Below are positions 40,479 through 45,251 of a stretch of 64,000 bases of DNA, piece by piece; the first letter of the stretch is position 1; each line of letters begins with the position of its first letter. A model generated the notes under the pieces. The model was not told where the DNA came from, searched no databases, and saw only the letters and a list, made by a program, of their open reading frames with translations. This stretch comes from Mycobacterium sp. SMC-2 (lineage in GTDB: Bacteria; Actinomycetota; Actinomycetes; Mycobacteriales; Mycobacteriaceae), in NCBI RefSeq assembly GCF_025263485.1, contig NZ_CP079863.1, positions 2,418,001 to 2,482,000 of the forward strand. Direction: 5' to 3'. A program made the translations under genes and the position numbers.

Positions 40479-40479
<1 letters not shown>

Positions 40480-43400
40480 TACGCGGACTCCTCGGCGGCG
40501 AGTGACGAAGACTCGATGCGGTCGAACAAGCTGTCCAACGTACTTCCCGCCGACGCGGACAGCGCCGCGATCTGGTCGTAGTCCGAATCCACGGTGGGCG
40601 CAACCATTTTGGTGAGTTGATCCGCCAACGCGGCGACGGTGGGATGGTTGAACAGCATCGTGGTCGAAATCTCTACACCCACCAGGATCTCGGCCTCCCG
40701 GCGAATCGCCATAGCCATCAGGGAATTGAGGCCAAGCTCGGCGAGAGGGCGGTCGCTCTGAAGCTCCGGCTCGGGCACCCGCAGCTCGCGGGCGACGATG
40801 CTGCGCAGCCCGCTTAGCAACTCCGCGCGCACCTGCGCGGGCGTCAGATGCGACCAGTCCCGCACCGGGATCACGGGTGCGCCGCCGGATTCCGGCAGCA
40901 GGTCGTCGACGATGTGCAGCGCGCCGCGGGTGCGGTAGGCGGCCGCCAGCAGCGGCCAGTCGGCGTCCACCACAACCGAGTGCACGCCGGCGGCCGGACT
41001 CATCGCCAAAGGCAGCGCCGTGATGGCGATCTCGTCGTCCATGGGCACCAGCCCGGTTCCGACACTGACCTGGCCGGCGTCACCGTCGCTGTCGGCCAGG
41101 GATTTCCACAGTCCCCAGTTGACAGTGGTGGCCGCGAGTCCCAGGGCGCGCCGCGCGTACACCAGGGCGTCCAGATAGCCGCTGGTGGCGGTGTAGTGGG
41201 CCAGCCACCGCGAACCGGTCAGGCCGGAGATCGAGGAGAAGACGACGAAGTGGCGCACCGGCGTGGTCAGCGACAGCCGGTGCAACACCGCCGCGGCGTC
41301 GAGCTTGGGCGCGAACATCGCCGCGACGTCGTCGTCGGTCATCTCGTCAAGCACCACCGGTCGGCCGGCGTAGGCCGCGAGGTAAATGCCTTCCAGGGGC
41401 GGCAGATCAGCACCGAACCGGTCGAACAGTGCCCTCATGGCGGCCTCGTCGGCGGCGTCGGCGGCGACGGTGATCAGCGTGGTCCCGGTCGCGGCAAGGC
41501 TTTCGGCCAGTCCGTTGAGCCGCTGCCCCGGATTGCGCGACACCGCGACGATGGTCTTGGCGCCCATCTGGGCGAGCTGACGCACCAGGTGCGGCCCGAT
41601 GTTGCCGGTGGCGCCGATGACCAACTGGCTGGCGCCGGCGTCCAGCGTCACAGCTTCGGTGGGCAGCGCACGCCTGTGCAACCGGGGCACGTGCCGCACT
41701 CCGGACCGGTAGACGACTTGGTCTTCGCCGTCGGTGCCGGCGGCTTCGGCCAACACCAGCGGCGCGGCCAGCTCCGCGGGCACCGGGTCGTCGAGATCGA
41801 TGATGCCGCCCCAGATTTCGGGTTGTTCCAGTGCGAGGGTGCGTCCCAGGCCCCACAGCACCCCGTGCGCGGGGTTGGCGCGGTCACCCTCGGCGACCGG
41901 CTGACCGTTGCGGGTCACGATGAACAGCTTGGCGGAAGAGCCGGCCATGGCGGCGGCAAGGCGGCGCGCTCGGTGAAACAGCTGATATGCCAACACAACT
42001 GACGTTTCGGAGGCGGGCGGTGCGTAGAGCACGCGATCGACACCGTCGAGCGCCTCCTCGAGAGCGGACGCTTCGGCGAGGGCCGCGGGCTCCAGCAGGT
42101 CGACGCGCGATTGCGGCCCCGCGACGCGGCGCAGTTCGTCGGCCAGGCCGGTGTCGGCCACCGCCAGCCAGCGGCCGCTCGTCGTGGCCTCGGCGTGCGG
42201 TAGTGGGCGCACCGGCCAGATGACCTCATGGCACCAGTCATCGAGCGGGGTGCCGTTGCCTTCTTGCGCTGCCTGCGTCTCGGCGGCCCGGTCGCGGGAA
42301 CCCTTGGGGCGCAGTGCCGGTGGGGCAGCCGCGGTGGCGTCGATCCAGTGGCGGGTGTGGTGCCAGGGGGTGGTCGGGATCTGCGGGTGCGGCTCCGGCG
42401 GATGGGGGGTTTGGGGCGGGTGGGTGGCGCGCACCGTGTTGAGGTTGGTGTGGAACGTGATGGTGTCGTCCGCGTCGCGCTGCAGGGTCCCGGTGCTGAT
42501 GTACTTGCTTCCGTGTTGTGCCGTGTGCAAGGTGTCGAGGACGGCCTGGGTCAGCAGTGGGTGTGCGCTGATTTCGATGAAGGTGTGGTGGTCGGTGCCG
42601 GCGGTGGTGATGGCTTGGTGGAAGTGGACCGGGTTGCGCATGTTGGTGGCCCAGTGTTCGGCGTCGAAGGTGGGCCGGGTGTCGGGGTTTGCGTAGGTGG
42701 TGGAGAGGATGGGGATGGTTGGCGGCTGGGGGGTTAGGTCGGCCAGTTGGGCGCGCATCAGGGGTTGCAGGGGGTCCATGGCCGGGTTGTGCGGGGCGAC
42801 TTCGATGTTGACCCGGCTGGCGAACCGGTTTTGGGCGCGCACGGTGTCGATGAGCTCGTCGATCTCCTGGTTCGGTCCGGCGATGACGGTTTGGCGGGGG
42901 GAGTTGTAGATGCCCAGCGTCACCTGGGGGTGCTCGGCGATCAGCGCCTCGGTGGCGGACGCATCGAGCTCCAGCAGGGCCATGGTGCCCTGGCCGGATA
43001 GCGGGGCCATCAGCTGGGAGCGGGTGGCGGTCACCCGTAAGCCTTGGGCGGGGGTGAGCGCCCCGGCGACCACGGCGGCGGCGACTTCGCCCATGGAGTG
43101 TCCGATGACCAAATCGGGGGTGATGCCATAGGAGCGCCACAGCGCGGTCAGCGCCAGTTGCATGCCGATCAGGCCCAGCTGGATCTGTTCGATGCCGACC
43201 AGCTCGGCCCCGGTGGCGATCGTCTCGTGCAGCGAAAAGCCGGCCTGGGCAACGAAGTCGGGCTCCAGCTCGGCGATCGCCGCGGCGAAGGCCGGCTCGT
43301 CGGCCAGCAGTTGGCGGCCCATGCCGGCCCACTGCGACCCGCGCCCGGAGTAGACGAACACCGTGCCCGGCCCGACCGCGCCCTCGCGGGGACCCACCAC

Positions 43401-45251
43401 GCCGGGGGCGTGCTGAGCGGCGGCCAGCGCCCGCAGCCCGGCCACCGCCTGGGCGCGCTCGCGGGCGACCACCGTGGCGAACCGCGCCTGCCGGGCCCGG
43501 TGATGGTTGAGCGTGTGCGCCACATCGGCCAACGCCACCCCCGCCCCGGGGCCGTCCATCCACTCGGCCAGCACCGACGCCGTCGCCGCCACCCGCTGCG
43601 CCGTCTTACCCGACACCACCAACGTCGACACCCCGAGATCGCGGTCACGCCGCACGCTCGGGGAGGTTTCCTGACCTTGCTCGATCACCACATGCGCGTT
43701 CGTGCCGCCGAATCCGAACGACGACACCCCGGCGCGGCGGGGATGCCCGCGATCGGGCCAACTGGTCCGGGTGCGAACGACTTTCATCCGCAACTCGTCG
43801 AAGGGGATATGCGGGTTCGGGCTTTCGAATCGCTGATTCGGCGGAATCTGGCCACGCTGCACCGCCAGCACCGCCTTGATGAAGCCCGCGATGCCCGCCG
43901 CCGCCTCGGTGTGGCCGAGGTTGGTCTTCACCGCGCCGATGAGCAGGGGAGCATCCTCGGAACGCCCGCGGCCGAGCACCGTGCCGAGGGCACGGGCCTC
44001 GATGGGATCGCCCAACAGCGTTCCGGTGCCGTGGGTTTCGACGTAGTCAACATCGCTGGGCTGCATCCCGGCGTTGCTGTAGGCGGCCCGCAAGACCGCC
44101 ATTTGCGCCGCCGGGTTGGGGGCCATCAGGCCGTTGGAGCGGCCGTCCTGGTTGATCGCCGAGCCGCAGATCACGGCCAGCACGCGGTCGCCGTCCCGTT
44201 GCGCGTCGGTAAGCCGCTTGAGCACCACCACCCCCGCGCCCTCGCCGCGCACGAACCCGTCGGCCGCCGCATCGAAGGCGCGGCACTTGCCCGTCGGCGA
44301 CAACGCGCCCACCTGGTCGAAGCCGCGAAACACCGCCGGTGACAACAATAAATTCACCCCGGCCGCGATGGCCAGCTGGGAATCCTCGGTCCGCAGACTC
44401 TGGCACGCCAGGTGGATGGCCACCAACGACGACGAGCACGCGGTGTCGACCGTCACCGAAGGGCCGCGCAGGTCAAGGAAATACGAAAGACGGTTCGCGA
44501 TGATGCTCGTCGCGCCGCCGGTGTTGCTCCAGCCGTCGACCCCGCAGAAGTCGTTCGAGGCGATCGCCCCGTATTCACTCAGGCACGCGCCGGCGAATAC
44601 TCCCGTCTGTGACCGGCGCAGCGAGCTCGGCGGGATTCCCGCGTGCTCCAACGCTTCCCAGGCCACTTCCAGCAGCAGGCGCTGCTGGGGGTCCATCTTG
44701 TCCGCTTCGCTCGGCGAGATCTCGAAGAACTCCGCGTCGAAGGCGTCGATGTCCGGCAGGAACGATCCCCAGCGCGTCGTCCGGGCGAGCGCCGCCGCCA
44801 CGTCGGGCGACTCCGACTCGAACGGTCGCCACCGTTCCGGTGGCACCTGGCCGATCGAGCAGCCGCGCTCACACAGGAACTGCCATAACGCCTCGGGCCC
44901 GGCTATTCCCGGGAACCGGCACCCCATCCCGATGACGGCGATTGGCTCGTCGAGTGGGGTGCGGGCCGGGCGGTTGAGTGTGGCGTCCGACTCGGGGCCG
45001 GGCTCGGGCGCGGTGAGGTAGGCGGCCAGAGCGTTGATTGTCGGGTTCTGCCAGAAGTCGACCGGGGATACCTTCTTGCCCAACAACTCTGACAGCTCGC
45101 CGGACAGCACGACGACTTCGCGGGAACTCACACCGAGGTCGGCCAGCGACAGGTCGGGGTCGACTTCGTCCGGGGTGCAGCCGATGTTGGTCACCAAGTA
45201 GTCGACCAACCAGTGGCGCAGGTCCGCTTCGCCACCGATGCCTGACGTCAT
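40479..45251 (-). CDS. ppsA: Phthiocerol-type polyketide synthase PpsA, chimeric form
   Basis: First module, 1590 residues. It has a loading ACP (Ser43 in LGVSS), KS (Cys272), AT (Ser719; VAPH), a pseudo-KR plus KR of PpsB type (VIGATGNIGPHLVRQLAQMGA, HYTATSGYLDA near 1352) and a C-terminal ACP (Ser1510 in LGLNSLM). Loading ACP, KS and final ACP match M. tuberculosis PpsA. That protein, as I recall it, has about 1876 residues with a DH-like fold and a different KR (LITGGLGALGLL) between AT and the last ACP. Here that whole block is replaced by PpsB-like sequence. It accepts the FadD26-activated acyl chain and adds a unit reduced to hydroxyl. The ATG at 45251 overlaps the fadD26 stop (ATGA); the longer upstream frame lies in fadD26. 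Confidence 0.94.
40896..41925. repeat. Near-identical KR-coding tract, ppsA copy
   Basis: Counterpart of 36361-37390 in ppsB. Its distal edge (40896) falls where PpsA returns to PpsA-type sequence ahead of the final ACP, so this edge is a candidate recombination junction. Confidence 0.85.
42609..43648. repeat. Near-identical AT-coding tract, ppsA copy
   Basis: Counterpart of 38050-39089 in ppsB. It is a mosaic: at 42957-42975 it carries the ppsC variant rather than the ppsB variant, while beyond the ppsC tract it follows ppsB. The edge at 43648 marks the change from PpsA-type KS to shared sequence. Confidence 0.87.

What the first reader, a model, noticed from the sequence alone, without database searches (positions are those of the whole stretch)
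40479..45251. PpsA is a natural PpsA/PpsB chimera lacking the DH-like block and own KR
Loading ACP, KS and final ACP are PpsA-type. Everything between the KS-AT linker (about 43648) and the final ACP linker (about 40896) is PpsB-type, including the pseudo-KR and a KR with GATGNIGPHLVRQLAQMGA. The M. tuberculosis PpsA I recall is about 286 residues longer, with a DH-like fold and a KR reading LITGGLGALGLL. The diol-forming modules 1 and 2 would then use almost the same KR, and one set of intra-module contacts has been replaced by a natural swap at clean domain edges. It is a natural example of PKS module re-engineering.
Basis: partly seen in the sequence, partly recalled or inferred. Interest (0 to 1): 0.8.

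Follow-up and report, generated by a model that had tools for sequence, protein, structure and literature searches.

The report
Polyketide synthase PpsA with swapped loop
In this mycobacterium the first enzyme of a wax-lipid assembly line carries the ketone-reducing part of its neighbour's type instead of its own, a swap shared by several related species and a natural example of how such assembly lines are rebuilt.

Summary
The core observation holds. The window's PpsA (40479-45251, minus; 1590 aa) has a PpsA-type loading ACP, KS and final ACP, no DH-like block, and a PpsB-type KR. The extent is wrong. Only the reductive loop (left edge between 42408 and 42245, right edge near 40890) is PpsB-type: 96 PpsB against 2 PpsA diagnostic residues. 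The AT has no type, since PpsA and PpsB of 17 long-form genomes show no diagnostic site there. Its 9 mismatches in 1040 bp to the window's ppsB are a separate conversion, younger than the split from strain E183, with partly GRINS-like skew. The post-AT linker is PpsA-type. The chimera is not unique: 11 more genomes carry it, and their loops (spongiae apart) group at 87-89/92. The short form is scattered on an rpoB tree, so one old swap plus lateral spread is likely, not proven. Eleven further genomes have a PpsA-PpsB fusion and no PpsB KS hit: a whole-module loss. Mis-assembly is very unlikely for the window but explains the apparent M. uberis fusion. New variant of a known kind.

The parts
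40479..45251 (-). ppsA, short form (1590 aa): loading ACP-KS-AT-(psi)KR-KR-ACP
   Evidence: overlaps the fadD26-like gene (45248) and shares base 40479 with the ppsB ORF
44982..45239 (-). loading ACP, PpsA-type (boundaries approximate)
   Evidence: two PP-binding stretches; 11 A / 0 B / 5 other in residues 1-100
43677..44948 (-). ketosynthase, PpsA-type (boundaries approximate)
   Evidence: KS tree
42609..43648 (-). KS-AT linker and AT core, 9 mismatches in 1040 nt to ppsB; recent A/B conversion tract, not diagnostic of A or B
42282..42911 (-). intense nucleotide skew (coding strand GC -0.30 to -0.58, TA -0.29 to -0.58), GRINS-like, overlaps part of the AT block and the post-AT linker
   Evidence: 16 of 155 windows in ppsA
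42408..42608 (-). post-AT linker, PpsA-type up to residue 948
   Evidence: (11 of 11 informative residues 885-948 A-type)
42245..42407 (-). interval that holds the left edge of the swap (residues 949-1002; includes the conserved PTTPWHHTRHW motif)
   Evidence: (mixed sites)
40887..42244 (-). swapped reductive loop: pseudo-KR and KR of PpsB type, in place of DH-psiKR-KR (right edge about 40892-40842)
   Evidence: (2 A / 96 B / 12 other in residues 990-1440)
41103..41633 (-). ketoreductase core (PF08659), PpsB-type; Ser, Tyr and Lys kept, Asn position is Ser as in PpsB
   Evidence: catalytic roles recalled
41400..41759 (-). younger conversion tract inside the loop (0.97 to own ppsB against 0.71-0.85 to G160 ppsA)
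40617..40808 (-). C-terminal ACP, PpsA-type, followed by a PpsA-type tail
35947..40479 (-). ppsB (1510 aa), intact reading frame
38050..39089 (-). ppsB copy of the homogenised AT block
36352..37764 (-). ppsB reductive loop, the type from which the ppsA loop derives (boundaries approximate)

Best explanation
The window encodes an intact-looking phthiocerol-type line (ppsA-E, a PapA5-type gene, a Mas-type gene) whose first extension module has had its reductive loop replaced. A DH-psiKR-KR block was exchanged for a PpsB-type psiKR-KR block, joined at the end of the post-AT linker and just before the final ACP, while the PpsA-type ACP and tail that face PpsB were kept (shown by sequence). The likely source event is an old recombination between neighbouring ppsB and ppsA in an ancestor shared, at this locus, by several slow growers, later moved between lineages (inferred). 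On top of it, the AT core and patches of the KR were recently homogenised by gene conversion between the window's own ppsA and ppsB (shown as more similar within the genome than to sister strains; direction not determined). The exchange should be chemically tolerated because PpsA and PpsB both leave a beta-hydroxyl (established pathway, recalled) and the lost DH looks dispensable: its His motif is not found in 7 of 17 long-form genomes, though it is present in the other 10 (inferred). Both diol carbons would then be set by PpsB-type KRs, so diol stereochemistry is the property most likely to change (untested).
For: Diagnostic residues 116A/1B, then 2A/96B, then 35A/0B along the protein and the A-type linker; KS, KR and ACP trees; loop tree with PpsA loops of window, E183, G160, G240, sp. 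1100029.7, sherrisii, montefiorense, simulans, G070, szulgai and G220 together (89/92; 87/92 without E183), nested among slow-grower PpsB loops (30-row clade 100/96*); the same KR to A-type ACP to ppsB order on single contigs of E183, G160, sherrisii and montefiorense; AT and KR tracts nearer to own ppsB than to sister ppsA; block statistics; AT skew and identity; DH motif loss in 7 of 17.
Against: Monophyly of the swapped loops is not starred. A sister relation of window A and B loops is not rejected (p-AU 0.188), and the alternative that the loop is a retained ancestral one is only just rejected (p-AU 0.048); later conversion could imitate nesting, and the groups were named after a tree had been seen. 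First modules of more distant mycobacteria are mostly short with PpsB-type KR (43 of 120 listed proteins), so the deep ancestral state is open. M. spongiae is excluded from the group (p-AU 0.022), which argues for more than one origin. The window has no genome held, so its sister strains were chosen by ppsA N-terminal identity (91-93%), not by rpoB. For the draft of the near relative E3039 (G001) no PpsB KS was found. No lipid data.
Confidence: 0.75

Rival explanations
1. The short PpsA keeps an ancestral first module without DH; its loop looks like PpsB only because A and B are homogenised by conversion, and the long DH-containing PpsA is the derived form.
For: Distant first modules of other mycobacteria are mostly short with GATG-type KR (43 of 120 listed). 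Conversion between A and B is demonstrably active.
Against: Class ii loops nest inside slow-grower PpsB loops; forcing them out costs 37.6 log units, p-AU 0.048. Long forms occur across the slow growers (17 full-length of 37 genomes in the set), and long against short needs at least 6 changes on the rpoB tree (the count does not tell gain from loss).
Confidence: 0.2
2. Assembly artefact: near-identical AT and KR repeats were mis-joined.
For: Such an artefact exists in this family: the apparent M. uberis fusion is one, since another contig holds long PpsA from residue 772 to the end (haemophilum numbering) and the PpsB start. Several contigs end inside ppsA.
Against: The window's PpsA loop differs from its PpsB loop (194 mismatches in 1392 nt); an error would need two joins; the same order is on single contigs of E183, G160, sherrisii and montefiorense and in loci from contigs of 6.16 Mb (L111) and 6.45 Mb (L132). 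The window's PpsB is listed on a 5.98 Mb contig.
Confidence: 0.02
3. Several independent loop swaps in different lineages at the same hot spot, with no lateral spread.
For: The short form is scattered on the rpoB tree; spongiae stands apart (p-AU 0.022).
Against: Class ii loops other than spongiae group together (87-89/92), and the KS of the six full-length class ii PpsB in the tree forms one clade (100*) against the rpoB tree; the joins look alike.
Confidence: 0.25

Closest known systems
PpsA of the M. tuberculosis complex (BCG PpsA, 1876 aa, ACP-KS-AT-DH-KR-ACP; PMC9210659, passages seen)
   Same: gene place, loading ACP, KS, final ACP
   Different: the window form lacks the DH block and the PpsA-type KR and is 286 residues shorter
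[quoted passage not shown]
   Same: the AT block repeats within the line at 99% identity and overlaps a stretch of strong GC and TA skew
   Different: high skew (42282-42911) covers only part of the 1040-nt identical block and runs on into the less similar linker
Domain replacement by recombination in the mls genes of mycolactone-producing mycobacteria (PMC2569948, passages seen)
   Same: domain replacement and homogenisation inside a mycobacterial type I PKS locus
   Different: here the loop was replaced between otherwise diverged modules (own A/B KS 59% aa identity), with loss of a DH
Laboratory reductive loop swaps in modular PKS (a title in the reference list of PMC9899208; that paper itself not seen)
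   Same: replacement of the block between AT and ACP
   Different: natural, and kept in several species

Membership tests
PpsA (first phthiocerol module) | loading ACP and PpsA-type KS between fadD26-like gene and ppsB | tested here: met
PpsA (first phthiocerol module) | DH block and PpsA-type KR as in BCG and the 17 long forms | tested here: not met
PpsA (first phthiocerol module) | PpsA-type final ACP and tail towards PpsB | tested here: met
PpsA (first phthiocerol module) | makes the first beta-hydroxy unit of phthiocerol | not testable with these tools
   no lipid or enzyme data
GRINS | about 1 kb, over 90% identity to another region of the same PKS | tested here: met
   (1031 of 1040 nt identical)
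GRINS | GC and TA skew over 25% | tested here: inconclusive
   met in coding windows from residue 781 to about 990, not over the whole block
PpsA-PpsB fusion (class iii) | PpsB-type final ACP and no separate ppsB | tested here: not met
   the window has an A-type ACP and a ppsB with an open frame

The most novel reading that the evidence does not exclude
The pps line of slow-growing mycobacteria is being rebuilt in nature by loop and module exchange: one reductive-loop swap arose once, travelled between species by recombination that can break inside ppsA, and a related crossover removed a whole module in the M. triplex group, so that these species make a new lipid class with one hydroxyl fewer or another diol stereochemistry.
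Probability: 0.35. Interest if true: 0.75.

Novelty: new variant of a known kind. Interest (0 to 1): 0.5.

Why it matters
It gives several natural loop and module exchanges in one PKS line, with edges, donor type and rough timing visible, in organisms whose lipids can be measured. It also warns that PpsA is not one architecture: public assemblies of this locus can be false (M. uberis), and lipid predictions from a pps locus need the loop and the ppsB gene checked.

Tried and rejected
AT phylogeny as a test of the chimera: set aside, because A and B ATs are homogenised in long-form genomes too and show no diagnostic site in residues 600-960. The AT part of the output was cut in the middle, so own-genome pairs were counted.

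KR-only tree pairing window A with window B (97*) as proof of a recent swap: set aside, because the full loop places window A with E183 and G160 PpsA (94/99) and the pairing is explained by younger tracts.

M. uberis as a further fusion lineage: rejected as an assembly artefact. Its false PpsA row is still inside the 60-row set (it is one of the 43 KR rows and of the 35 ACP rows) and, as P0029, among the 17 class iii-like proteins (checked); it was left out.

First rpoB tree: discarded, some rows had a wrong reading frame; redone. In one search, 43 of 50 rows were scored; G053 was scored long without sight of its loop, and G111 (long) and G251 (short) have broken ppsA genes.

KR stereotype from motifs: neither the long-form nor the PpsB-type KR shows the textbook signs (recalled) in the alignment, so no diol configuration is predicted.

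In one search the row L192_E183_A1 is really a PpsB fragment with a wrong label; it groups with window PpsB. In one search the last E183 window stretch (residues 921-988: 0.64, 0.32) and the last G160 one (842-869: 0.44) fall near contig ends and were not interpreted.

Literature: the listings (titles and starts of abstracts, capped lists) showed no paper on a PpsA with a PpsB loop or on a PpsA-PpsB fusion. Passages were seen of PMC2569948, PMC9899208, PMC7261415, PMC9210659 and PMC10394414; no paper was read whole.
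Full report
WHAT WAS CHECKED. The window holds a fadD26-like gene (45248-47002), ppsA (40479-45251), ppsB (35947-40479), ppsC (29468-35950), ppsD (24090-29612), ppsE (19677-24086), two ABC transporter genes, a PapA5-type acyltransferase (15759-17021) and a Mas-type synthase (9470-15748) (gene names by order and domains). PpsA is 1590 aa and PpsB 1510 aa.

PPSA AGAINST PPSB INSIDE THE WINDOW. In 25-codon windows nt identity is 0.36-0.88 through the KS, 0.95-1.00 over residues 548-872, 0.61-0.85 over residues 873-1113, patchy at 0.73-1.00 through the rest of the loop, and 0.40-0.52 in the ACP. 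The block 43648-42609 has 9 mismatches in 1040 nt; outside it there are 764 in 3011; the lowest 1040-nt window among 2000 permutations had 151.

RELATIVES. I looked at the reading frames of 73 loci and the window. Three architectures appear among the slow growers. Class i: long PpsA with DH plus PpsB (17 full-length genomes; in part also intermedium and, once the artefact is removed, uberis). Class ii: short PpsA with PpsB-type loop and PpsA-type ACP plus PpsB (window, simulans, szulgai, sp. 1100029.7, G070, G220, G240 and, with an altered second gene, spongiae; in parts also E183, G160, sherrisii, montefiorense). Class iii: PpsA-type start, PpsB-type loop and PpsB-type ACP followed directly by ppsC (11 genomes: triplex, rhizamassiliense, numidiamassiliense, stomatepiae, G116, G238, G365, G278, G362, G148, Aquia_216). 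Of the 120 listed proteins 36 are class i, 9 class ii, 17 class iii-like by ACP (the false uberis protein among them), 43 distant first modules with PpsB-type KR and ACP, 11 without loading ACP and with PpsB-type KS, and 4 others.

DOMAIN TREES. Sixty PpsA and PpsB proteins over 1400 aa from 37 genomes were aligned; partial, broken and distant genes were left out. KS and ACP trees split cleanly (KS 23 B and 37 A rows; ACP 25 and 35 rows; SH-aLRT 100*) with window PpsA on the A side; in the ACP tree the class iii proteins and the false uberis row fall on the B side. The KR tree puts all short PpsA with the PpsB KRs (43 rows, 100*). The AT tree, of which part of the output was cut, mixes A and B, with the window's two ATs together (100*).

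WHERE THE EDGES ARE. Using sites fixed (80% or more) in the 17 long PpsA and differently in their 17 PpsB, window PpsA has 116 A, 1 B, 16 other in residues 1-525; 2 sites in all in 525-990; 2 A, 96 B, 12 other in 990-1440; 35 A, 0 B, 4 other after 1470. At sites where the window residue is commoner by 0.4 or more in one group, 11 of 11 from residue 885 to 948 are A-type, 966-1002 is mixed, and B-type prevails from 1003. So the swap begins between 42408 and 42245, around the conserved PTTPWHHTRHW motif, and ends just before the ACP, near 40890.

TIMING. Window ppsA is 0.85-0.94 identical to E183 ppsA over residues 1-920, yet 0.97-1.00 to its own ppsB in 561-880; in 1165-1284 it is 0.97 to its own ppsB and 0.71-0.85 to G160 ppsA. 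These tracts are therefore younger than those splits; the loop swap itself is shared with E183 and G160 and is older. In the full loop tree class ii PpsA loops group at 89/92 or 87/92. Holding window A and B loops together is not rejected (p 0.188), as expected of a mosaic; holding all PpsB and class iii loops together without class ii loops gives p 0.048; adding spongiae to class ii gives p 0.022. These groups were named after seeing a tree, so the p values are soft.

SPREAD. On an rpoB tree of 50 genomes class ii is scattered; long against short needs at least 6 changes over 43 scored rows. szulgai and G220 stand by the long-form gordonae and asiaticum group (90/96), G240 by long-form basiliense (100/99*), while their PpsB KS groups with other class ii PpsB (100*). 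The G240 PpsA KS goes with basiliense (89 only), which hints at a recombination point inside ppsA. Lateral spread is inference.

WHY THE AT IS SPECIAL. AT nt identity (residues 560-880) between own A and B ranges from 0.784 to 1.000 over 23 genomes while KS identity stays at 0.607-0.652; the highest values include long-form leprae, lepromatosis, lacus and haemophilum. Coding windows with both skews at 0.25 or more: 16 of 155 in ppsA, 12 of 147 in ppsB, 7 of 212 in ppsC, 2 of 180 in ppsD, 0 of 142 in ppsE, and 1 of 1129 in window 1-18000 plus 48001-64000. This fits GRINS as defined in PMC10394414 (passages) in part of the block.

FUNCTION. The PpsB-type KR keeps Ser, Tyr and Lys and has Ser where long PpsA has Asn (catalytic roles recalled). 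The DH family scores of two long PpsA (24.8-33.3 bits) are only just over their cut-offs of 23.7 and 27, against 82.7-94.9 for the Mas-type protein of the window. The HxxxGxxxxP motif was not found in 7 of 17 long PpsA and is present in 10. Losing the DH therefore probably costs little. PMC7261415 (passage) reports erythro diols in M. marinum and M. ulcerans and threo in all others, so diol configuration varies between species and is the trait to measure.

CLASS III. A search of 51 genomes with the first 172 residues of window PpsB found a PpsB-like start (75-97%) in 36; the other 15 are the 11 class iii genomes, whose best hits are 60-62% and lie at ppsD, and four drafts with broken or partial loci (G001, G205, G004, G082). 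In 8 of the 11 the locus lies on a contig over 5.2 Mb. All 11 hold a PapA5-like gene and a Mas-like gene near the locus, but that Mas-like protein is 55-57% identical to the window's (65-67% for the best hit in the four class i and ii controls), and its frame is 2179-2343 aa in 10 of 11. They probably make another lipid (inference).

ASSEMBLY. The M. uberis fusion is false: a 4164-bp contig carries long PpsA from residue 772 to its end and PpsB 1-282. The same explanation does not fit the window (two distinct loops, and the same order in other strains).

VERDICT. A real, natural reductive-loop exchange, correctly spotted but drawn too wide and not unique. PKS recombination of this sort is a known process; the loop swap and the module loss in pps were not seen in print in the listings.

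Noticed in passing
L007, L012, L020, L112, L114, L117, L118, L119, L124, L125, L126: ppsA is a PpsA-PpsB fusion directly followed by ppsC, and no PpsB-like KS start was found in these 11 genomes: a natural whole-module loss.
   Followed up: partly
L019 and L191: The public M. uberis assembly shows a false PpsA-PpsB fusion; the missing parts lie on a 4164-bp contig.
   Followed up: yes
L120:6485-12352 (-): The M. spongiae second module has a PpsB-type KS but an ER and a PpsC-like KR, so its loop seems exchanged too.
   Followed up: partly
window 15759-17021 (-): The window PapA5-like protein is 63-68% identical to its homologues in the 11 class iii genomes but only 51-54% to those of four class i and ii controls, against the ppsA grouping.
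   Followed up: no
G138:C1:2233460, G246:C2:13618, G148:C1:1687966, G116:C1:4028093, G169:C1:2274759: The Mas-like synthase beside class iii pps loci has an extended frame whose start matches the PpsA loading ACP-KS start at 57-59%, so it may carry a loading ACP.
   Followed up: no
L020 and L021: M. numidiamassiliense carries two inverted copies of the pps region about 25 kb apart on one contig; real duplication or assembly error not tested.
   Followed up: no
P0024: A 167-member protein cluster labelled M. tuberculosis is a 1609-aa short form with PpsB-type KR and ACP, unlike the long PpsA of the complex; probably a wrong species label.
   Followed up: no
L028 and L030: Two MAG contigs titled Bifidobacterium breve carry a PpsA-like gene followed by a PpsE-like gene; probably mis-binned mycobacterial DNA.
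   Followed up: no
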